From NCBI GenBank assembly GCA_027946365.1, contig JAPEUQ010000004.1, positions 1,302,001 to 1,366,000 of the forward strand: DNA of 64,000 nucleotides, in the 5' to 3' direction. How positions within the stretch are numbered: position 1 is the first letter of the stretch; every line of letters begins with the position of its first letter. The position numbers were made by a program, and so were the translations under genes. A model generated the notes under the pieces. It saw only the letters and a list, made by a program, of their open reading frames with translations. It did not search any database and was not told the DNA's origin. The stretch is from Kalmusia sp. IMI 367209. Its lineage: Eukaryota; Ascomycota; Dothideomycetes; Pleosporales; Didymosphaeriaceae. Below, piece after piece: positions 33,039 to 55,714 of this stretch.

Positions 33039-35146
33039 TTACCCATGCTGCAGTCTCAGCACAAGATAATGATATCCAATTCGCTTGAGCGTCTTGCATC
33101 CAATCCTCCATAAAAGGTACTTGTCTGTTGCTCCAGCATGCGCATGCCCTACTTGTTCGGCCATTAGCGTATCTTGGAAACCCTTATCCCAGTATATTTC
33201 AAAACCATCGTTTGAGCCTGTTACATATTGATCCTTAGCTGTACCATCGTTGAATATGATGTATGGTTTTTCATCCTGAGTAGAGATTTCTATCGGCGCG
33301 ACGAAACCGGATGTTATCTCCAATTTAGTGGAGATGGCCTCCTTCCCAGCGTACTGAATTTCATGGCTACGCATGAGCTTGGGACGGAGCCACGGCCGAT
33401 CTCGAGGGTTATTAGAGGGATGTATACGTACATCGAACTCATTGCTGATAATGACGTCCATGTAGCGGGTCGGGTACTCAATCGGCCCGTCCCAGCCGAG
33501 TGGTGACCAGCTTGGGAAGTCGCGACGACGTCGGGAGGGCTGCAGGTGGGTCCAGTTCAGCGCGAATTGTAAGTGATCCTCCTTTGTTGTGTATACAAAG
33601 TTATTTACACTCTCCCACGTCGTCAAGTCGATTTTATCATTCCCATTCGAGGTTGGTGCTAGCGGTACGCCCCAGAGATGGAAGATCGGTTCTTTCTTAT
33701 GGTTTGATAGATAGTTGAGGATACCAACGATGGCATTCAGAGCGTCTCCGGATTTTCCGAGATTGCGACGACTATACGCTGTCACATATCGAAGGGCTTC
33801 CTTGAAACGCGATGAGCCGGCCGAAGAGTGGATTTCGCGAGGAAGCTGGGCACAAGAAAGAAATTCGGCAAGGTCTAAAAGTTCGTAATTGAGCCCGGAG
33901 CTGTAGTCTGGAGCGAGATCGTGTAAGTAGTCTTTCATACATATGTATAAGACAGCCTGATCGGTGAAGATGAGCCGGCGCTTTGAAAGGATGCCTTCTT
34001 GAAACGTCCAGCCACGGGTTGCCCACGTTGATTGGTGGACGTCGCGAGCAGTCCGCGTCATAAGCTGGACCAGAGTTACCGGACCGACTTGTTCTATCCT
34101 GGTTTGACGGGAATTTCTTCGTTGGCTTACGCCGGGGAGTCCGTATGTGGGATCCGTGCCGACTGCTGCGATAATGGTGAGATGTGCAGAGGCGTATATC
34201 TGGCCCATCTGCTTGATTTGCAGGTACCGATCCATGGCGCTTGTTTGATCGATGCAATACCTGTCGATCCAGAGATACCGAAACCCAAGTCGTAGTGTTA
34301 TACGGATGGCGTCTTCTATGGTGGGTGTCTGTTCGGCAGGAGGTGTTGGTGTGCACTCTCTGGTAATGGGCCCCAAAGATAGCTCAGAGCCACAAAGACA
34401 CACTTTTCAGGCGCATCCTGCACACATCTTCTCTCGCAATCAATTACTTTCAACCTTTCTATTTCAGTCGTCTCATCGGGATGGCACTCCTCATGATCGT
34501 AGCAACCCTCCATCCAACCTTTGATGAGTTCATGATCGACACGTAGAGTAGATGGAGAAGAGAGTTGTAGATCATTTACGGGATTCTGCGTGACGCCCAG
34601 ATACGAGCCGGCCAAATCGGCATCATGGGCAGAAGCGGGTAACTCTTGGGCAAACGTTAATTTGCCAATGAAGCGTGTCTGATCCGCAGGTACAACCCAT
34701 TTCAAGCAATTATCTTCGTCGAATCGCTTGATGGACCCAATCATACGGCACACGCGACCTTTTTAGGCATTAGATGCGAATGAAGATAAATGTAGTTAGG
34801 CCAACTTACACTGCGAGCTCTCTAGATCTTGTTTTGATTCATGCACATTTTGTAACACAGGGACAGGGCCATGATGGTGGCCTTCCAAGAATCTAGGCCA
34901 AGGAATTGTTGCGCAGCGGCTACAGACTTCACTGATCGACCGAGGCTCTATAGGTGATCGTGCATCGCCGTTCTCCAACAGGTGATCGGGTGCCTGGATA
35001 GCTGCGCGTCAGCAGTCGCGATTGTCGAGGAACAGGGTCAGCCCTACCGCGATATGATCGTCAAGAACCTCAAGTTTCCGCTTCGGCCACAGCCACGTGA
35101 AGAGTATTACTCTCCTCCAATTTTTTGAGAATCGAAATCGTGCCAT
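33039..35146 (-). CDS. HET-domain (heterokaryon incompatibility) protein, frameshifted
   Basis: Fungal allorecognition-type protein; HET domains trigger cell death on non-self contact. Exon 1 (ATG 35144-35146) reads MARFRFSKNWRRVILF. Introns at 34994-35047 and 34759-34809 lead to the Cys-rich N-terminal region (VCSRC, SSQCRVC). HET core motifs are FVALSYLWG, LGFRYLWIDRYCIDQ, IYASAHLTIIAA and WATRGWTFQEGILSKRR. Between FVALSYLWG and TIEDAIRITLRLG the frame changes within about 34330-34375. That segment has no usable intron (the only GT...AG pair would be about 27 nt), so it is a likely one-base indel. The 3' part has no recognisable partner domain. The first exon is less certain than the rest. 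Confidence 0.8.
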
Positions 35147-37249: not shown

Positions 37250-38134
37250 CTAGTTAGCATCCTCAGTCGGCTCTGCCGGCGGGGCGCTAGCAGAGGCTGA
37301 AGGACGTCCCGAGGGCCTGGCGCTGCGGGAGAATGATGGGCGGGCTAATCTTCATGTTCAGCTCCAGAGCTAGCAAGGAGAAAGTAGAGGAAACTTACCG
37401 CTGCCAGTAGGAACGCCAGATGGAGCACCAGTAGGGCGGGAGAAAGACGGGCGAGCTAAGTAGATCAGCGGACTATTCAATCATTAGTCGAGATCACATA
37501 ATGGTAACTTACGACCACCGGTCGGCACGCCGCTGGGAAGACCAGTCGGGAAGCCAGAGGCTTTTTAGCATCGTTAGCGCAATCGTGTCATTTATCTTCA
37601 GTGAGGAAACTACTCACGGAGACCCGTTGGGAAACCAGAAGCTGGTCCGCAATGTTAGCTCCTTCGATTTATACAACTCTAGGCAAATGAAACTCACGAA
37701 GACCTGTAGGGAAGCCAGAAGCTAATCCGGAGTGTTAGCTCATTCAATATAGACAGCTCTCCTTGAGGAGAACTTACGAAGGCCGGTAGGGAAGCCAGAA
37801 GCTGATTCAAACAATTAGCACCGTGAATTCATGTTATTCCCTTAATAAAACATACGAAGACCAGTGAAGCAAGGACGAGGGCGGCCAGAGCGGGTGGCGC
37901 TGGTGGGGGCCTCCTGGGGCTCAGCGAGCGGGACGGCAATGGCGCTATTATAGAGTCAGTTAACCTTTTCGATGTAATATAATACAAAGTGAAAGTTTTA
38001 GAAACCCATCGTGAACTAAGTGACTCCAAAGTGCACGGTTCGCGAAGGCAGTCTCTAACCTTTCAACCTTGAACTGTTGTCTTGAGGGAAAGTTACCCAG
38101 CGGCGAAGATAGCAGCGATGAGAGAGAACTTCAT
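37250..38134 (-). CDS. Secreted octapeptide-repeat protein encoded by symmetric micro-exons (132 aa)
   Basis: No family recognised. Eight exons on the minus strand: 38097-38134, 37856-37944, 37778-37801, 37698-37721, 37618-37641, 37513-37560, 37399-37455 and 37250-37344. They sum to 399 nt, exactly 133 codons, and every intron has GT and AG ends. Exon 1 encodes the start of a signal peptide (MKFSLIAAIFAAG), completed by AIAVPLA in exon 2, so it should be secreted. Exons 3, 4 and 5 (24 nt each, phase 1-1) each encode PSGFPTGL. Exon 6 (48 nt) encodes PSGFPTGL plus PSGVPTGG. Exon 7 has RPSFSRPTGAPSGVPTGS, and exon 8 a related RPSFSRS then a Ser/Ala/Pro tail and stop TAG. There is one Cys and no KR/RR Kex2 site. 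Codon use is strongly C-ending, as in well-expressed genes. A structural or signalling peptide are both possible. Confidence 0.85.
37513..37801 (-). repeat. Tandem exon-intron units of 80-81 bp
   Basis: Exon starts at 37801, 37721, 37641 and 37560 are spaced 80, 80 and 81 bp. The 24-nt coding part is conserved (differences only at synonymous sites). The introns of about 55 bp have diverged apart from splice sites and a GCTAAC/GCTAAT branch-like element, which is repeated at the same distance from each acceptor. Confidence 0.85.
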
Positions 38135-40050
38135 TTGATGTAGGGTTGAGAACGATTGAAGACGAGCTTAAAACTTTTTCAGAAGGTTGGAAACACTGGA
38201 GCTGGATTGTCCGATGGTGTCTACTTTGCGTCGAAGGCAGTCCTGTCTTTATACTTCTCACAAGCCTACATTGTCGTGTTTCTCCGTTGCCATATTTTGA
38301 CTCGGATGCGGAATTCAATATCGCCGTCTGGGGCGTTGTGATGACGATCGGACTTGCGTAGATGAGGCTCAATATCCATTGATTTCACCATTGCGCCCGC
38401 CATAGCCCACCGATCTTTCGTGCTACGGGCTGGTTGCCCTATACATCCCAAATTTCCGACTTGCAGATGCTAGAAGGCTGTTGTGTTGCGGGGAAAGCTG
38501 CAGGGACGTTGCACAGTGCTGCAGGATAGATTGAACACTGAGAGTGCCCGGGACATTCCGAAACTCAAGCTTTTGATCGGAGTGGCCAAGCACTGTTGAA
38601 CCAAGTAGGAGGCGTTGAGTAGTACACTTTAGGACAATTGCCACGAATGGGATGACAGTGCGAGGCGCAGGGTGATGATCTGCAACTGTTGTAGCTATAT
38701 GAAAAGTTCGGTGCGTCGAATAGACGCATAGCTGGTAAAACGCCATCCCTGGTCTATGTGACGAATGACGAGTGTCCCCTGATCACGATGATCGAAAGAT
38801 CTCGCAGTTACGGACCGCTTGGTACTGTCGGTGCTTTCTCTTTTCGAGAAGGATGCTATTACCATTGCATTTAGCCTTTTCATATTCGAGGAATAATTCG
38901 ATCGCAAGCCACATGTGAGTCGTGGTAAGATGCCGAGGAGCTAAACTGATCAACGGCGACGTCGCAAGCAAAATCGGGCCCAGCCGATCTGGCTACAGTG
39001 ACCCACTACTGAGTACTGAAGAGCTCTGAGTAAATAGCTCTGGCTAGGTTCAAGGGTTTTAGATTATGATGCTGCCCGGGTAACAAAGCCCAACAAAGAA
39101 TAGACAAATGCGGGGCGAATTGAGTGACGTTCATGTTGCCGAAGAAGTTGGCATGCAAAACTTCGGGTAAGTAATAGAACGAGATGCGTGGTTCAAGTTC
39201 GGCTGACTGGGCATGGTCGGAAGTGATGCAATTCTGGGAAGCCAGCAGGGCGCACAATGGCGGTGCCTGTTTCTCCAGGAATAGTGGCTTTTTTCAGGGA
39301 TGTCTCGCCAATCATGCGACGTCGGACGCGTAAGCTTGTTGTGCCCGGGGAATGACATCTCGAAATCCAGGATGGCGAGCGAGCACGTCTACCTGACACC
39401 AGGACGCGTATACACACAAGAAAAAGCACGGACAAGAAGTACTTACAACGGCGCGTGCGATGGAACGTGAAGTAAAGGTAAGCTTCGCACAGTGATGAAC
39501 TAACCGGACATAAATTGGATGGTGGAATGCGCTAGCGTGGTGATTGGTCGGGCTACCTAGGTGTTCCTGAATTCTGCCGCTCTGGGCTCATTATTTCTCC
39601 GCAATCGGGTGGCGATCTTGTGGAGAACGTAGTGGCCGCTGTGGCACAGACCGGGGATTTTCAGGATGCAAAGGCCATGGGGGAGGGCTAGACGCCATGC
39701 GAACATATTAAGTGGTCTGTGCCTGACATTTCGTCACTGCTCGCTTCCTCAAGAAACAGGCCACTTGGAATCTACTGACCATTCGAATTATGTACAACTA
39801 GCTACAATTGAGGGGGCCAGGTCAATAGTGAAAGTGCCCACATAATATGTCAATGACCTTTGAAGCAATAGAGCACCACCTCACGAGGTGTCTCATGTTG
39901 TACAATAGATATTTGTTGAGAGACATTCAGTATCGGCGATGGCTGCGGAAACTCATGTAGATGCAAAGGTCTTTCGATATACATTCTAGTGACGCAGAGA
40001 TCAGGCTCTTGGAGATCCAGGTAGAACTTATGCGGTGGCTTTTCGCACTT
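38135..40050. other. Upstream region of the micro-exon gene; otherwise empty
   Basis: Apart from the TATA box listed separately, I find only short unsupported ORFs. A gap of 1.9 kb upstream of a small secreted-protein gene may hold control elements, but I cannot name any. Confidence 0.4.
38248..38253 (-). promoter_or_regulatory. TATA box of the micro-exon repeat gene
   Basis: TATAAA on the minus strand, about 115 nt upstream of the ATG at 38134, a normal distance for a fungal gene with a leader of about 80 nt. Confidence 0.55.
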
Positions 40051-41858
40051 CTACGATATTGACACTGACGGCAGTGGAATTACACTTGCATTCAATACCA
40101 CTCCTTGATCAATCAACCGGTCTTTTAGTTCCAAATACGGAACCTCTTGAATGATACATGCGCGACTAAGAGCGATATCGCAAGCATTTGCACAAGCTTG
40201 ACCCAGCGCATAAAATTGATGCTCTAGCCGAACTGCACCTGTTATGCATCAGCACACCACAAACGATGTCATCATAAAAGGCAGTAAAACTTACCGTAAC
40301 CGACATGGGAGCTTGATGGACACGTTGGAGTAATGATATTTGTTGCTTCTATCCGCTTTGGAACCAAAGCTCGATAGGAAATCCCGAACGGAATCCACTT
40401 GTGTCCGTCTTTGAAGATGAAGCCCTCATTGTGAACGACACCGTTGCGAATAACCCGCCGTGAGCAGTGCGTATCCGTTGGCCAGCAAGCCACTGCCACC
40501 GGGTCAGACACGGGATCTTCGCCGTTTAGCGATGCTGTGTGCTCGGTAATGATATAATCGGATATCATCCTGCGGCCAGCGCGAACATATAATTGGCGTG
40601 GAAAGTGGTCATTGTCAGGGAATTCATCGAGGCAATAACCCCACTTGGACCACTCGCTACGCACGCTGGCAGGGAGCGAAGGATCGCTTGTGAAAAAGTA
40701 CAGAAGGCCTTGTGTGAACGAAGTAGTCTCCTTTAAGATCTTTGTCCGTCCTTCGTCTCCAACAACTAGCCAGTCATCGTTCAATCCCAAGAGATCTGTG
40801 GCAAGGACGGCTTCAGAGCCAATCAAATCTGTCTTACTGTTTGGAACCCGCGGGGCTGGAAGGTAAAATGTGCCTCCTTTTTCAGCGAAGCGCCGATGCA
40901 GCTCAAATTGAGACGGATCATAGTCTTTAGGCTTCGTGATAGGTTTCTGATTTGCAGCGATGTTGGTCAGAGGCACACGGTATGAAAATGCGGGTAGATG
41001 TTTGTCCGCATCACCGGGGATGCCAAATGGCTCATCCGAAACTCCAAATATTGTTCCACTTGTAGGGTCACCAGGCGTGCGATAAGGATCGATAGGCTTG
41101 TCGAACTGCCTATATGGTGTTTCGCTGCGAATTCCGTTCAAGCTTTCTCCATATGTGGAACTGGACTCGCGGCCGAATGTGGTCGAAATGCCCACTCTGT
41201 GCAATAGGTCGCCCTCATATGACGCATCTACAAAGATCTAGCAAGTACAATGAGCAGAGGTCTGAAAGATCACTTAATGGTTTCCTACCTTTGCCTTAAT
41301 TTCTATGTTGTCTGTAAGACGTATGCTCTGAATTGTCTGCCCATTTTTGGACAAGGAACCTTGCTCCCGAAGCGATGCCTACAGGTTTCAGTTCACATTG
41401 CGGGGATTGGATGTATACGCCCTTACGTAGACAATATCAATATCATGTTCTGCAAGCCAGCTAGAAATGACCTTCTCCGCGACTTTGGACTCGAATTTCC
41501 ATACCAGAGGATCTTTTAAATTTTCCGCTACGACTTTCTCAAGATACGGCAGTCGATCGTACACAGCGCTTATTCTGCGGTGAAACTCCAAGGACAACCC
41601 ACCCAAAGTTCCACTATTTTGGAATTCGGGTTGATTATCAATATCTGTTGATCCAAGGCCCTCGATCTGAATACCTCCTACCCGGCCGCTTGTCAGTTTG
41701 AACAACAAAGAATTTTTGTGCATCTAGGACCGACCTATATGTCTGTGTGGAGATATTAAAGCGGCCCTGCGCCCTAGTCTTGCGCTCTGAATGGCAGTTG
41801 CAACTGCGCCTGATGTTGAACCGTAAACGGCAATCTCATATTCAGCGGGTGCGGCCAT
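40051..41858 (-). CDS. FAD-dependent oxidoreductase (FAD_oxidored-like family), 531 aa
   Basis: Flavoenzyme, substrate unknown. The N-terminus EYEIAVYGSTSGAVATAIQS followed by LGRRAALISPHRHIGGIQIE is a Rossmann-type FAD-binding start. Further family-typical stretches are GLGSTDIDNQ, FVDASYEGDLLHRVG, SLNGIR and SSSHVGYGAVRLEHQFYALG. Start ATG is at 41856-41858, stop at 40051-40053. Introns 41678-41734, 41379-41426, 41238-41288 and 40239-40294 give exactly 532 codons. The first intron has a weak donor (GTCGGT) but restores HIGGIQ. No signal peptide is visible. Nothing ties it to the NRPS, although an oxidase role cannot be excluded. Confidence 0.88.
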
Positions 41859-42584: not shown

Positions 42585-44470
42585 ATGGGCGGCAAAGGCA
42601 ACATCTTCGTCGCCAGGGATGCGTGGAAGTCGGCGACCACCAGATTAGTCCTCATATGTGCGTTGTATTCAATGGGCAGTTTCTTCTTCGGATAGTATGT
42701 TACCACGCCTTCCAGACATTGCACTGAAACTGACCATCGCGAAGTGATGCAGCTTCCTTTGGCGGCGTCCAAGCCTTCCAACCCTTTGCCAAAAAATTCG
42801 GTTCTTACAACCCCAGTACTAAGCAATGGGCCCTCCCCGCCAAAACTGCTTCATTGATGAACAGTCTGCCCCTTATAGGGAAATTCATAGGGACGTTGAT
42901 ATGTGGCCCTATGATCGAGAAGCTCGGCCATCGCACGAGCATGTTCATCACCTGCTTCACGCAAATCGTCGGCGTAGTCATCCAATGCACCAGCCACGGC
43001 ACCGTACAGTATACTGCGGGACGAATAGTCATCTACCTCGCGGTCGGGCTAGTCGAGAACGTCGTGCCCACGTACCAAGCCGAGATTGCGCCTGCGCCGC
43101 TTCGTGGGTTCTTCGTCGGCTCGATACAGCTCTTCCTGACATTCGGGAGCCTCATAGCGGGTATTATTAATAATGAAATGGCAAAGTATATGAGCGATTT
43201 TGGGTGGGTTTTTGCGACGGCATTTCAAGCTGTGCCGGGGGTTATCATTCTCTGTGGACTACCATTTACTCCAAGTATGTGAGCGAGTGAGATGAGAGAG
43301 GGAAGATTTGCTAACAACGTGTGCTAGATTCGCCTCGCTGGTTGGTGCAGAAAGATCGCGCAAACGAAGCAGAAGAAGTCCTTCGAAAATTGCGCACGCA
43401 GGCCGATAATGAGAGTGGGCTTTGTGTGTTGGAGTTGACTGCGATGTGTGAGGAGACGCAGATTGTCAAACAGAAAGATCCGTGGTCGCCGCTTTTCAAG
43501 GGAACTAATTTCCGCAGGACCAAGTATGGTCACCCCTCTACACACGATGGAACGAATGCTAATCAGGATAGTATTGCTATTTCGATCATGGCCCTGCAAC
43601 AATTGACAGGCGTTACTTTCTCTAGCACGTATGGACCAACGTTCTACAAGCAAGAAGGCCTCGGAAACATGGCATTCACCTATGCAGTAAGTCAAACCAC
43701 GCTTGACTCTAGCTCTCTTTGACCATTTGCAGGCAATCAACAACGGCGTGTCGGTTGTCACCGCTATCATGGGAATGGTCATTCTCGACATGTTTGGCCG
43801 CCGCAGTGTATCCCTTTGGGGCAATATCGGACAAGGTCTGTTCCTCTTCTTGATCGGGGGCCTAGGCGCAATAGCGAATCGCTCTACTTCGGACACTCAA
43901 GGCATGGTTGCGTCCTTCATCATATATGCCGCTATACTGCACATGACCTTGGGCCCCGCAGCATACATCACCGCCTCGGAAGTAGGCAAATCGTCGCTGA
44001 GGGAAAAGACTATGTCAATCTCGGTATGTGATTTCCGTCCTCGCTTTTTTTTTTGTTACTGACAAGAATTGTAGACTGCTGTCAATGTCGTCGTCAGCTT
44101 CGTCGTCGTCTTCACTACTCCCTACTTGCTTAACTCGTCTTACGCTGGTCTCGGCCCTCGGCTGGGCTTTGTCTGGGGAGGCTGCGCGGTCCTAGGTGCC
44201 GTGTGGGTCTGGTTCTGTATGCCGGAGCTCAAAGGCCGAAATCTCGAGGAGATCGACGAGTTGTTCGAGGCAAGGCTGCCTGCGTGGAGATTCGAAAAGT
44301 ACGAAACTACAGGGATCAGTCACGACATTGGAGCTCTTCAGGGGAATCACAACGCCCTCACGACATCAAAGAATGCTGCAGTTGAACTGAGAGATGTTGT
44401 TGAGAACAACCATGATCTGAGGATGATGCAACGAGACACTAAAATTGGTGTGGGGCTCACCCTACAGTAG
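42585..44470 (+). CDS. MFS sugar transporter, 545 aa
   Basis: Plasma-membrane sugar:H+ symporter or facilitator of the major facilitator superfamily. Family signatures in order: FFFGYDAASFGGVQ in TM1, MIEKLGHRTS after TM2, AGRIVIYLAVGLVENVVPTY with the downstream PLRG, NSPRWLVQKDR before the central loop, ALQQLTGVTF, DMFGRRSVSLWG, and PELKGRNLEEIDELFE at the end. ATG at 42585; introns 42695-42744, 43275-43327, 43524-43571, 43687-43732 and 44024-44074 give 546 codons with no lesion. The product resembles fungal alpha-glucoside/hexose porters, but the substrate cannot be read from sequence. Confidence 0.93.
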
Positions 44471-51729: not shown

Positions 51730-53768
51730 TACAAACAACACTCTCTCAAAGCTGAGGAGCCAACACAAGGTCCTTTAAACCACGCCTCATCGTTAGACTT
51801 GCACTGCTCGTGAATCTTGCCATCATCCGCCTGATAGTAAAATCTCAGGTCGCTCCCATTGTTCCACTCGACAGCAGAAGAAAGTGTTCCGAGCGATAGT
51901 TGTCCGACGACTACGCCATCGGAAAACCACCCTCAACTCCACTTATATGTCACGATATTCTTCTTGAAATCCTGGCAGTACACACGTAGCTGTGGTTCCG
52001 CGTTGTACCATCCAACGGCGGCGATTGAGGTGCGGTCTGGCATCTTGTCAGTACTGAAATCGCCTATGTTGTATCCGTGTCAAAAGCTGATTACCTTCCA
52101 CAGGGAAGCATTCTATCTCACCTGTATACGACACTTCTTCTAAACAGTATTCTCTCAAAGTCATGTCAGGAGCTTGGTAGTATACCCGGATACGAACCCT
52201 AACATCCTTCCAGTATACTGCGGCAAGACTGCTCCCTGTCAGAGCGACTGGGAGCGTAGTCCCTTTGTGCCACTTATTACCGTAGAAGTATTTCTCGATT
52301 GGATCAGCTATATAATCTGCTAATGTGTTAGATACGTGACATTGAAGTGATCTCGGGGGCATGGCGGCAAGGCTGCTCCCTATAAGAGCAACTAGAGCGT
52401 AGCCCTTATATGCCAGTAATTACCGTAATAGTATTCTTGGATTCGATCGGACATATAATCTGCAAATCCGTTAGATATGTGACATTGAAATGATTCCGGA
52501 GGCACCTTGCCTTGAGCATACAATCGAATCCTCGGACCCGACTCTTCGTCGGCACAGTACACGGCAGCGAGTCTTGTTTCTGCAGCAACGCGAAACCACT
52601 CTCTGTTGATACCGCCAGTGTACCAGTCACTTCTTCCGGACGAAAAGCATAATTCCTCGAGATAGTTGGCTTCCGAGATGTAGTAGATGCGGATCTAATT
52701 CATTCGTTTCATGTCAAATGTGTTCCTTTATAAGGAATACTAGTAGAGCCTAGAACGCATCATACATACCTCCTTACCCGAATCAAAGTTGATGACAGTC
52801 AAAGGAGTGAACAACTTCGCGCTCACATTGGACGAGTTTGTCGCCTTCCAACATCCGTTCTTAGTGTACTCACGTATTACCCCTTGAGCATCTTGGAAGT
52901 ATACATTGCACTTCAACGGACCTGTAGCAGTAATGGCAATGTCGTTTCCGTAAAGAAGCCCGGGCGGCTTGTCGACCAAAGAGCGATGATCGCGTTTTAG
53001 TTGCTCTCTAAGGAAGCTATGTAATGATGACTGATCATGGGCGAACCCGTTGATCTCTCTTTGTAGCCGACGAAACGCTCTATCTTGACCTTCTCCATAA
53101 ATAACTGACATGGATACGTTAAAGATCCCCAATAAACAGTAAGCTGCATCCTCCTTACGTGTCGTTTCACGCTTTTTTACCCACAATTTCCGCGCCGCAG
53201 CACTGAATTGAGATAAAGGGTTCCCTTTGAGAGCTATCGAAGGTATCTCCGTAACCTCAGTAATCAGAGACATAAGCGACTCTCTATCGCCTAGCCGAAT
53301 ACACTCAGAGGAGAAGAACTCGACAGAGGTCGGAGCGAGAAGCTCTTGAAGTGTCCAACCTCGAGTAAACCACCTGCTGTTTGTAAAAGCTGTGTCGACT
53401 TGATCATCGTTGGCGTTAGTGGTTGAAACATCGGATAGATATACGTAGCACTTGGCTGCCGTATGGTACCACTGGAACATAGAGTTAATAGCTTCTGAAA
53501 GCTCTGCACTGCTTGTTTCATCGATACAACAAGTATCTATCCAGAAATATTTCAAGCCGTCTTTTACAGCTTGCTTACTACAAAATTCAAGCTTACGATA
53601 TCCTTTCTTGAATTTTACTTTATCTGTATCTTCCCTCAGGTCCTTGAACGCAACCCCTTCATAGTCCGCTCCCCAAGTATGGGAAAGGATTGCATACTTT
53701 TGGGCAGGTTCTGCTGCATAGAGTTTCAGGCTGAGGCTTCCATCGTCTTCAATTTTCAGCAGGCGCAT
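51730..53768 (-). pseudogene. HET domain joined to a fucose-lectin-like (AAL-type) propeller, lectin part decayed
   Basis: The ATG at 53766-53768 (MRLLKIED) opens a HET domain: YAILSHTWG, YFWIDTCCIDE, FTRGWTLQELLAP, TRKEDAAYCLLGIF and the end motif YGEGQDRAFRRLQ. An intron at 52695-52769 joins it to repeats of Aleuria-lectin type: NVYFQDAQGVIREY, IRIYYISEANYLEEL, RIRLYAQ...IQEYYYGNYW, RIRVYYQAPDMTLREY, LRVYCQDFKKNIVTY and LRFYYQADDGKIHEQ, enough for six blades. The lectin part has a 143-bp tandem duplication, a one-base loss in one copy, and TGA at 51933-51935. The HET part alone is open. Exon borders within 52225-52515 are uncertain (one may use a GC donor). If expressed, the product is HET with a truncated lectin. 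Confidence 0.75.
52225..52510 (-). repeat. Tandem duplication of about 143 bp within the lectin region
   Basis: Two adjacent copies share a branch/acceptor block (ATCTAAC...GCAG) followed by DYMSDRIQEYYYGNYWH in one and DYIADPIEKYFYGNKWH in the other, both ending GSSLAA. Their acceptor sites are 143 bp apart (52460 and 52317). By eye they are about 75% identical, so the duplication is old. The promoter-proximal copy has lost one base after CTC. Confidence 0.75.
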
Positions 53769-55714
53769 GGGGAAATTCGGTGAGGTGCTCAAAGAAAGTG
53801 AACCGTGGAAAAAGAGCGCTGGAAATCGGATATAATTAGATAGGCATATGCCTATCTATAGATGTTTCGACAATTGAGCAAATACTAACGGCATAGCGGC
53901 GACAATGGTTAATACTAGTGGGTCGGGCAGCAATCACCAGGCTGAGCTGCAGGGATCTATGCCACGTAGTTGTGTAACCACAGCACTGCCAGATGAGGTG
54001 GACCTCTGACATTGCTACCGACAGGAAGAGCTCAATCTATCCGGCCTCAGCGATAACCTTGCGTAAAAAGCTACACCGGTATGTAAGCAGAGATTAAAAG
54101 ATGGTATGTAGGCCTGCGCGTGGAGCCAGTCGATTGGCTCAATCCACAATAACAGTGGACTTAGTAGCTGCATCTAATGATTATCATAAGGTATATGGAA
54201 TCTTTTTCAATATCTCTCCTAGTCAAGTTAATCGTGAACATCGATAAATTATATGTATTACTAATCATCGAAAGATTGTACGTAGTATGAAGGGTATTAA
54301 ACTAAAAAAGATAGCAGCGGTTCCCTCCTGCTTTTCTAACTTGAAAGGCGTTTTAAAAGGTGTTGACAGTAAAGGTGTTGCGTTTCCGCCAGACTTATCA
54401 GATCATCAGATTAGATCATGAGATCATCACGCCAGATCATGAAGCGAGGCTTGGCGCACGCTCCAATTGAAAGTCGTTCAATTCATCAAAGAAAGGACAC
54501 GGTACGCGTACCGTCTTTTGACGACGGCTTCTCATCATGGTGGCAGCCATGATGAGTCGCCATCCGTCAAGATTGTCGCAAGCAGCAACCGTCATCTCTC
54601 CGCCTCGCTAACTACAACGTCAATATCCGCCTTGCCGACTGCGAAAACCACATCGATAAATATCTTTTAATATTGTCCCGGGAAGACCCGGGTATGAACA
54701 CAATTTAAAGTATGATCTAAACTGATATGCAGTACAGTAATGTATGATCTACGTCATATGTAGTAGCAACATATCGTATACCGTAGCCATGATGACTATG
54801 ATAATGTCATGAGAAGGAAGAAGCCTAAGGTCTGAAGCTCGTTTCCATCACCAATAATGATACATTCAACACGTTCAAACCCAAGCTTGATTGCGCGGTG
54901 GGTCTATTTCCATTGATCCTGCTGCCCTAGAACTATTCCCGTCAGCCTTTTCTTGACATGTGCCGCATTGGGAACCTGCATTTCGCGCTAGGCGCTTCCG
55001 TCAAAAGCGGGGAGCCACGCCCCAGGGGCTAAGCGCTTTTATGCCATCATCATCATCGTCATCCACAAAACCCAAGCTTTTGGGAACCTAGCTCATGTCT
55101 ATTGATTTTGAAATGCGACACATCGGCTAGGTATATTTCATATATCTTCTATCTCCATGGCATATTTAAAATTCTACGACGTCGGCTGTACTTAGTCGAA
55201 CGGGCGAGAACCTAAAAGCTACTCAATCTGCACGTGAATCAAAGTCATCTTCGCGTAAAGGGACACACTAGTCCGTTCTCAACACTTGGCTCTCATCACC
55301 ACGTGGCTTTCAACTTTCGCTTGTGTCTCGGAAGCGGATCCAACGTAGTCGTTCGGAGCGATATCCGGTTCTTTAGCCTTCAAGCCACAGAGAGCTATCC
55401 GGTAAACTTTCCTAAGATTCTCCTTTCTAACGTCAATCCACGTCGATTTACGTCGATATGCCATTCGGACTCCGCTATACTTTTTGTATATAACCAAATT
55501 TTACCATCTCGCTCGTAAAGCTGGCTTTTAGATTGCAAACTACATGCCACAAGCCACCAACCGCAACCGTGTGGATCAGTCTTGGGTTAGCTTGGGCTAA
55601 AAGATATATATTCTTGCAAGCGGAAGTCCGTCATCAACTATACATGTTTGGGGCATTTGGGCGGTGTGGAAACTACATCTGTATTACCAGCATTCCCTTT
55701 TTTCGTCGCCTTTG
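53769..55714. other. Intergenic, partly AT-rich, with short palindromes
   Basis: No gene supported. Contains an AT-rich stretch (about 54180-54330), GATCAT-rich repeats (about 54398-54442) and several perfect inverted repeats listed separately. It should carry the promoters of the HET-lectin gene (left) and the rhodopsin-like gene (right). Confidence 0.45.
54499..54514. repeat. 16-bp perfect palindrome
   Basis: ACGGTACGCGTACCGT is its own reverse complement. Shortly downstream are two more perfect inverted repeats: CTCATCATGG/CCATGATGAG around a 6-nt loop (54531-54556) and CCCGGG/CCCGGG around AAGA (54677-54692). Confidence 0.8.

What the first reader, a model, noticed from the sequence alone, without database searches (positions are those of the whole stretch)
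37250..38134. Micro-exon gene encoding a secreted PSGFPTGL-repeat protein
Seen directly: eight GT-AG exons sum to 133 codons, beginning with a signal peptide. Consecutive octapeptide repeats sit on separate 24-nt exons (37778-37801, 37698-37721, 37618-37641), with related repeats in exons 6-7. No long ORF reveals it. Micro-exon genes for secreted repeat proteins are known from schistosomes; I know of no described fungal counterpart with one octapeptide per exon. It lacks Kex2 dibasic sites, so it is unlike the usual repeat-containing fungal RiPP precursors.
Basis: partly seen in the sequence, partly recalled or inferred. Interest (0 to 1): 0.88.

Follow-up and report, generated by a model that had tools for sequence, protein, structure and literature searches.

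The report
Fungal secreted-repeat gene with tandem micro-exons
A small fungal gene appears to encode a secreted, proline-rich repeat protein in which identical eight-residue repeats sit on separate 24-letter exons, an unusual layout for a fungus that seems to have grown, at least in part, by copying an exon together with its intron.

Summary
The eight GT-AG exons at 38134-37250 (minus strand) join into 399 nt, 132 residues plus a stop. Three 24-nt exons and the first half of exon 6 encode the same octapeptide, PSGFPTGL. These four units differ at six columns, all third codon positions (P = 2e-4). A generic scan of 264 kb of this genome found one chain of three or more linked micro-exons, this gene; 40 shuffles gave none. 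So it is very probably a real spliced gene, although no RNA was available.

Best reading: a secreted, disordered P-[S/T]-G-x protein, probably of the wall or extracellular matrix. Its central repeats grew by duplication of an 80-bp exon-plus-intron module: introns 3 and 4 are homologous (z 6.8). Function is inferred. Exon skipping is possible, since all 32 combinations stay in frame, but untested.

It is not a schistosome-type MEG: exons of 36 nt or less make up 18% of the coding sequence, against about 80% there. It is not a Kex2-processed repeat protein: no dibasic site. Fungal micro-exons are known (Tuber, Trichoderma). One octapeptide per exon in a secreted fungal protein was not found in ten paper searches.

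The parts
38097..38134 (-). exon 1: ATG and most of the signal peptide-like segment (MKFSLIAAIFAA and part of the next codon)
   Evidence: hydrophobic N-terminus, 9-residue means 1.8-2.6 over residues 1-19
37856..37944 (-). exon 2: end of the signal peptide (AIA|VP is my reading of the cleavage site), spacer, single Cys, first FTGL
37778..37801 (-). exon 3: 24-nt micro-exon, PSGFPTGL
37698..37721 (-). exon 4: 24-nt micro-exon, PSGFPTGL
37618..37641 (-). exon 5: 24-nt micro-exon, PSGFPTGL
37513..37560 (-). exon 6: 48 nt, PSGFPTGL + PSGVPTGG (two units on one exon)
37399..37455 (-). exon 7: 57 nt, PRPSFSRPTGAPSGVPTGS
37250..37344 (-). exon 8: 95 nt, ARPSFSRSARPSGRP... C-terminal tail and TAG; its start resembles that of exon 7 (by eye)
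37612..37806 (-). tandem array of the 80-bp exon-plus-intron module (2.4 copies, 78% matches)
   Evidence: Tandem Repeats Finder; introns 3 and 4 align with z 6.8
37945..38096 (-). intron 1, 152 nt, phase 2, within the signal-peptide coding part; donor GTAACT
37802..37855 (-). intron 2, 54 nt, phase 1
37722..37777 (-). intron 3, 56 nt, phase 1, branch-like CTAAC
37642..37697 (-). intron 4, 56 nt, phase 1, branch-like CTAAC
37561..37617 (-). intron 5, 57 nt, phase 1, branch-like CTAAC, acceptor AAG
37456..37512 (-). intron 6, 57 nt, phase 1
37345..37398 (-). intron 7, 54 nt, phase 1, no YTRAY branch-like site found
38247..38253 (-). TATAAAG, a possible TATA box 113-119 nt upstream of the ATG (read by eye, inference)
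   Evidence: sequence

Best explanation
This is a real, intron-rich fungal gene, apparently single-copy, for a small secreted protein (116 residues after the signal peptide as I read it: 22% Pro, 16% Ser, 15% Gly, 9.5% Thr). The core is a tetrapeptide series P-[S/T]-G-x; each 24-nt exon carries two tetrapeptides, PSGF and PTGL. The central repeats multiplied by tandem duplication of a DNA module made of one 24-nt exon and one intron of about 56 nt (80 bp). Exons 3-7 begin and end in phase 1, so gain or loss of a module keeps the frame. Splicing of these short introns would follow the usual fungal intron-definition route (inference from general knowledge). The protein probably works as a flexible, turn-rich, O-glycosylated spacer or coat component of the wall or extracellular matrix (inferred from composition only). 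Shown: gene architecture in the DNA, homology of the repeat units and of introns 3 and 4, synonymous-only divergence of the four units. Inferred: transcription, secretion, glycosylation, role.
For: Gene model and phases. All 6 GTRNGT sites in the gene are its donors, and the four octapeptide units vary only at third codon positions. Only chain of three or more micro-exons in 264 kb, none in 40 shuffles. 80-bp tandem array; introns 3 and 4 align with 41 identities, 10 mismatches and 10 gap positions, z 6.8. The four exon units agree at 19-22 of 24 bases. Codon usage favours the frame. No other copy of the gene or of the two-module stretch was reported in the 42.8-Mb genome. Repeat type: Pfam PT disordered repeat, E 1.1e-5, 25.3 bits against a cut-off of 26.2. 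Other fungi have signal peptide-like N-termini followed by the same kind of repeat (P0011 Xylaria, P0017 Dichomitus, P0040 Daldinia).
Against: No RNA or protein data. No orthologue found: residues 80-132 gave 0 hits from 106 candidates and residues 1-44 gave 0 from 3 at E of 1 or less. Introns 2, 5, 6 and 7 show little or no similarity to introns 3 and 4 (all z 2.6 or less), so the duplication history is clear only for the central modules. The DNA search did not list even the neighbouring, partly similar modules, so its power for diverged copies is unproven. A wall or matrix role rests on composition alone; I see no GPI-like C-terminus (by eye, no tool) and no known wall domain.
Confidence: 0.72

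Rival explanations
1. A fungal analogue of schistosome micro-exon genes: regulated skipping of the symmetric exons 3-7 makes a set of secreted isoforms that differ in repeat number, giving variation at a surface.
For: Exons 3-7 are all symmetric; all 32 skip combinations stay in frame and give 16 distinct proteins. Tuber diversifies receptors by alternative splicing of 3-bp micro-exons (passages of PMC4986451 and PMC10197012).
Against: No evidence of skipping. Introns are short and the donors of introns 2-7 all fit GTRNGT, which favours constitutive splicing (inference). Only 18% of the CDS lies in exons of 36 nt or less. Exons 3, 4 and 5 encode the same peptide, so skipping among them changes only repeat number.
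Confidence: 0.12
2. A precursor of small secreted peptides (RiPP, pheromone or signal) in which the octapeptide is the active unit and is released by proteolysis at sites other than dibasic ones.
For: Signal peptide-like start plus exact tandem octapeptides; the amino-acid sequence of the four units is kept while third positions drift.
Against: No dibasic site in 132 residues. The nearest listed UstYa match on the same contig is about 306 kb away (C25:1033039-1033524). Similar repeats occur in proteins of many kinds, with a disordered-repeat model as the nearest family.
Confidence: 0.08
3. The introns were inserted one by one into an older uninterrupted repeat (introner-like elements) rather than duplicated with the exons.
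For: Introns 2-7 all fall in phase 1 at unit boundaries; introns 2, 5, 6 and 7 are poorly alike.
Against: Introns 3 and 4 are alike over their whole length (z 6.8), and the 160-bp stretch that holds both had no second match listed in the genome (sensitivity for diverged copies unproven).
Confidence: 0.07
4. A pseudogene or chance assembly of splice-like signals, not an expressed gene.
For: No transcript evidence; no orthologue found; weak sites at introns 1, 5 and 7.
Against: Third-position-only divergence of the units, unbroken 132-residue frame, all GTRNGT sites used as donors, no comparable chain in shuffles.
Confidence: 0.05

Closest known systems
Schistosome micro-exon genes (MEGs)
   Same: Signal peptide, secreted product, tandem symmetric short exons that can be skipped in frame
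   Different: MEGs: about 80% of the CDS in symmetric exons of 6-36 bp (passage), 10-20 very short exons and introns of 0.1-5 kb (passages). Here 18% of the CDS in exons of 36 nt or less (54% at 81 nt or less) and introns 2-7 of 54-57 nt; skipping unknown
Tuber melanosporum NACHT-ANK (nank) genes with codon-sized micro-exons
   Same: A fungus with multiple micro-exons in one gene family (passages)
   Different: NLR-type receptors, 3-bp exons, alternative splicing reported; not a secreted repeat protein. The original paper (Iotti et al. 2012) was not read
Trichoderma Xlr2 micro-exon
   Same: Micro-exon in a filamentous ascomycete (abstract and passages)
   Different: A regulated micro-exon in a transcription factor
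Kex2-processed repeat proteins (KEPs) and ustiloxin-type RiPP precursors
   Same: ER signal peptide and highly repeated unit, at least 8 residues in that survey (passages of PMC7329392)
   Different: No dibasic Kex2 site; no UstYa (DUF3328) match within about 306 kb
PT disordered repeat (PF04886) and fungal PSGFPTGL-type proteins (P0011, P0017, P0040)
   Same: Same tetrapeptide grammar after a hydrophobic N-terminus
   Different: Exon layout of those genes unknown here; ends of the proteins show little agreement. PF04886 is under its cut-off for the query and for P0006, P0011 and P0040, and not hit by P0017
AM-fungal AGL proteins and SP7-like effectors
   Same: Secreted fungal repeat proteins; AGLs are Pro/Gly-rich with an intron next to the signal-peptide cleavage site (passages)
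   Different: AGLs have one or two introns, SP7-like genes a conserved intron before the first repeat; repeats are not described as one per exon in the passages seen
Schistosoma mansoni tandemly repeated exons encoding 81-base repeats (Davis et al. 1988)
   Same: Repeats encoded by tandemly repeated exons (title seen in a reference list)
   Different: Animal parasite, longer repeat; paper itself not read

Membership tests
Schistosome-type micro-exon gene | about 80% of the coding region in symmetric exons of 6-36 bp | tested here: not met
   72 of 399 nt (18%) in exons of 36 nt or less; 215 of 399 (54%) even at 81 nt or less; definitions from passages
Schistosome-type micro-exon gene | symmetric short exons | tested here: met
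   exons 3-7 are 24, 24, 24, 48 and 57 nt, phase 1 on both sides
Schistosome-type micro-exon gene | long introns (0.1-5 kb) | tested here: not met
   introns 2-7 are 54-57 nt, only intron 1 (152 nt) is in that range; definition
Schistosome-type micro-exon gene | secreted product with signal peptide | tested here: inconclusive
   hydrophobic N-terminus by hydropathy; no signal-peptide predictor available
Schistosome-type micro-exon gene | isoforms by exon skipping | not testable with these tools
   no RNA data
Kex2-processed repeat protein / dikaritin precursor | Kex2 (dibasic) sites flanking repeats | tested here: not met
   no [KR][KR] in 132 residues
Kex2-processed repeat protein / dikaritin precursor | DUF3328/UstYa gene in the vicinity (true of only 22.3% of KEPs, so not strictly defining) | tested here: not met
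   of 102 listed matches the nearest on the contig is about 306 kb away
PT disordered repeat (PF04886) | score over the curated cut-off | tested here: not met
   25.3 against 26.2 bits; just below
SP7-like effector | hydrophilic imperfect repeats each ending in a conserved island; a conserved intron before the first repeat | tested here: inconclusive
   compared by reading only: PSGFPTGL repeats with introns between them against the description

The most novel reading that the evidence does not exclude
A fungal lineage independently evolved a secreted micro-exon repeat gene in which each octapeptide is an exon cassette. Repeat number would be tuned both by genomic duplication of the exon-intron module and by in-frame exon skipping (up to 16 distinct proteins), convergent with schistosome MEGs.
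Probability: 0.12. Interest if true: 0.75.

Novelty: new variant of a known kind. Interest (0 to 1): 0.45.

Why it matters
Tandem-repeat secreted proteins of fungi are usually thought of as uninterrupted minisatellites (general knowledge). Here the repeat unit is an exon-plus-intron module, so the unit is kept at protein level while its introns drift, and copy number can change without loss of frame. Such genes are easily missed by gene predictors, because no long ORF marks them. If found in relatives, it would make the birth of micro-exon arrays by tandem duplication directly observable, and it offers a compact natural test of how a fungal spliceosome handles serial 24-nt exons.

Tried and rejected
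Paralogue search: the protein query gave 7 places in the own genome, 4 of them this gene. The next, C30:1245652 (E 0.07), has three stops in the matching frame, and its other strand reads as a KPEGKPE/KPES-type repeat, so I reject it. The two C23 matches (E 0.19 and 2.3) were fetched but not studied further. The repeat part alone gave 4 places: this gene, the same C30 place, and weak matches on C1 and C12 (E 0.08 and 0.2), not followed.

Orthologue search: the whole-protein search returned 67 proteins from the 7988 candidates that were scored (the ones sharing most words). I read 12 of the 67 sequences; all 12 hold P-[S/T]-G-type repeats. 16 of the 67 carry a Streptomyces name and 3 a fungal one in the listing, so I treat most as convergent low complexity. 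Searches limited to the N-terminal and C-terminal parts found nothing.

PDB: OCM3 (9ufe, E 4e-14) matches only through PSG-type repeats. I recall OCM3 as an algal mastigoneme protein; no call shows that. No structure prediction was run, as the protein is expected to be disordered.

Viral contigs: the octapeptide-plus-donor pattern gave 0 matches. Rfam (gathering thresholds) and tRNA searches of the window: none. Introner-like elements: no second match of the two-module stretch was listed, but that search also did not list the neighbouring, partly similar modules, so the test is weak.

Census: the first version required YAG acceptors and found the three 24-nt exons only. I then widened it to HAG because exon 6 has an AAG acceptor, which lengthened the chain to five. 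Shuffles were run only with the wider rule. The census covers 264 kb, 0.6% of the genome, and exons of 9-60 nt only, so genome-wide uniqueness of the architecture is not shown.

Full report
What is there. On the minus strand, eight exons between 38134 and 37250 join into a 399-nt reading frame, 132 residues plus a stop. Exon lengths are 38, 89, 24, 24, 24, 48, 57 and 95 nt. The seven introns are all GT-AG; the first is 152 nt and the rest 54-57 nt. Intron 1 is phase 2 and introns 2-7 are all phase 1. The protein begins MKFSLIAAIFAAGAIA, a signal peptide-like segment by hydropathy (no dedicated predictor was available). It then carries a P-[S/T]-G-x tetrapeptide series: fourteen P[ST]Gx matches, the first ten consecutive from residue 43. 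Exons 3, 4 and 5 each encode exactly one PSGFPTGL; exon 6 encodes one more plus PSGVPTGG.

Is it real? No RNA was available, so the case is from sequence. First, the region holds six GTRNGT sites on this strand and all six are the donors of introns 2-7; each strand of the 64-kb window holds 112 such sites. Second, the four PSGFPTGL units differ at six columns and all six are third codon positions (probability 2e-4 if columns varied at random). Noncoding repeats would not be expected to do that. Third, a rule-based scan that knows nothing of the peptide looked for linked exons of 9-60 nt, introns of 45-75 nt, a GTRNGT donor, an acceptor, a branch-like site and an open frame. In 264 kb (the window and two 100-kb stretches of other contigs) on both strands it found three chains of two and one chain of five, and the chain of five is exons 3-7 at the coordinates above. 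Forty locally shuffled versions of the same 264 kb gave 81 chains of two and none longer. With a stricter acceptor rule the same place was the only chain of three. Fourth, codon usage learnt from long ORFs of the window favours the proposed frame (+16.5 bits against +3.5 and -28.5). Every intron is below zero in its best frame, four of them only just. Third-position GC does not discriminate (0.57 in frame, 0.64 and 0.77 out of frame). Every intron brings an in-frame stop if retained. Weak spots are the GTAACT donor of intron 1, the AAG acceptor of intron 5, and the lack of a YTRAY branch-like site in intron 7.

How the array arose. Tandem Repeats Finder sees an 80-bp unit, 2.4 copies, 78% matches, at 37612-37806. 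The unit is one 24-nt exon plus one 56-nt intron. Introns 3 and 4 align over their whole length (41 identities, 10 mismatches, 10 gap positions, z 6.8). The other intron pairs reach at most z 2.6. So at least the central modules arose by duplication of exon and intron together. Exons 5 and 6 probably belong to the same series by their exon sequence (19-22 of 24 bases shared among the four units), but their introns no longer show it clearly. Exons 7 and 8 begin alike (RPSFSR), which may be a second, longer duplication (read by eye). No second copy of the gene or of the two-module stretch was listed in the 42.8-Mb genome, and the octapeptide DNA pattern has only these four exact matches. This speaks weakly against introner-like insertion, because the DNA search also did not list the neighbouring, partly similar modules.

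What it probably does. The mature part is 22% Pro, 16% Ser, 15% Gly and 9.5% Thr, with one Cys and no Lys. Pfam's nearest model is the PT disordered repeat, just under its cut-off. I infer a flexible, turn-rich, probably O-glycosylated extracellular or wall protein. Other fungi hold proteins of the same repeat grammar behind a hydrophobic N-terminus: Xylaria P0011, Dichomitus P0017, Daldinia P0040, and P0006, which carries no name. Their ends agree little with this protein and their exon layout could not be seen. They suggest that the protein type is ordinary in fungi, not that this gene has orthologues. Searches limited to the ends of the protein found no relative (0 of 106 candidates; 0 of 3). 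The gene is either lineage-specific or missed by annotation elsewhere.

Alternative splicing. Exons 3-7 are all multiples of three between phase-1 introns, so all 32 skip combinations remain open and give 16 distinct proteins, because exons 3-5 encode the same peptide. This makes skipping possible without loss of frame. It does not show that it happens. The regular short introns and GTRNGT donors suggest that constitutive inclusion is the default (inference).

Comparison. Schistosome MEGs share the signal peptide and symmetric micro-exons. They have about 80% of the coding region in 6-36-bp exons (passage of PMC5825161) and long introns (passages of PMC10526429). Here the share is 18%, or 54% if exons up to 81 nt are counted. 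It is therefore not filed as a MEG. Kex2-processed repeat proteins need Kex2-cleaved repeats (passages of PMC7329392). Here there is no dibasic site, and of 102 listed UstYa matches in the genome the nearest on the contig is about 306 kb away. Fungal micro-exons are known: 3-bp ones in Tuber NACHT-ANK genes (passages of PMC4986451 and PMC10197012), a regulated one in Trichoderma Xlr2 (abstract and passages of PMC11121469; a passage there adds that fungal ones had been tested only in Schizosaccharomyces pombe), and a one-nucleotide exon in a Fusarium P450 (start of the abstract of PMC12940212 in a listing). AM-fungal AGL genes have one or two introns near the signal sequence, and SP7-like genes a conserved intron before the first repeat (passages). 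In ten paper searches I saw no fungal secreted protein with one repeat per micro-exon. These were listings of at most 20 papers each, and that library lacks most subscription papers.

Verdict. The gene is best filed as a new variant of a known kind: a secreted proline-rich repeat protein whose repeats are exon cassettes. The stronger claim, a fungal counterpart of the schistosome system, is open and would rest on transcript data.

Noticed in passing
window 9141-31991, + strand: Large multimodular NRPS locus: condensation, AMP-binding and PP-binding domains over several ORFs, with an ABC transporter ORF at 65-910 on the minus strand.
   Followed up: partly
window 33039-34403 (-) and 52740-53792 (-): HET-domain (heterokaryon incompatibility) ORFs; the first lies about 2.8 kb from the micro-exon gene.
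   Followed up: no
window 40272-41723 (-) and 42854-44470 (+): FAD-dependent oxidoreductase and sugar transporter genes, each split over several ORFs, probably by introns.
   Followed up: no
own genome G000, many contigs: UstYa (DUF3328) gives 102 exon-level matches in this genome, a large set of possible RiPP-type oxidases.
   Followed up: no
L008:2660-2830: On the minus strand a low-complexity KPEGKPE/KPES-type repeat reads through; its other strand produced the chance hit to the query.
   Followed up: yes
window 37801-37399, exons 3-7 joined: The joined micro-exons are open in all three frames, so only the neighbouring exons fix the reading frame.
   Followed up: no
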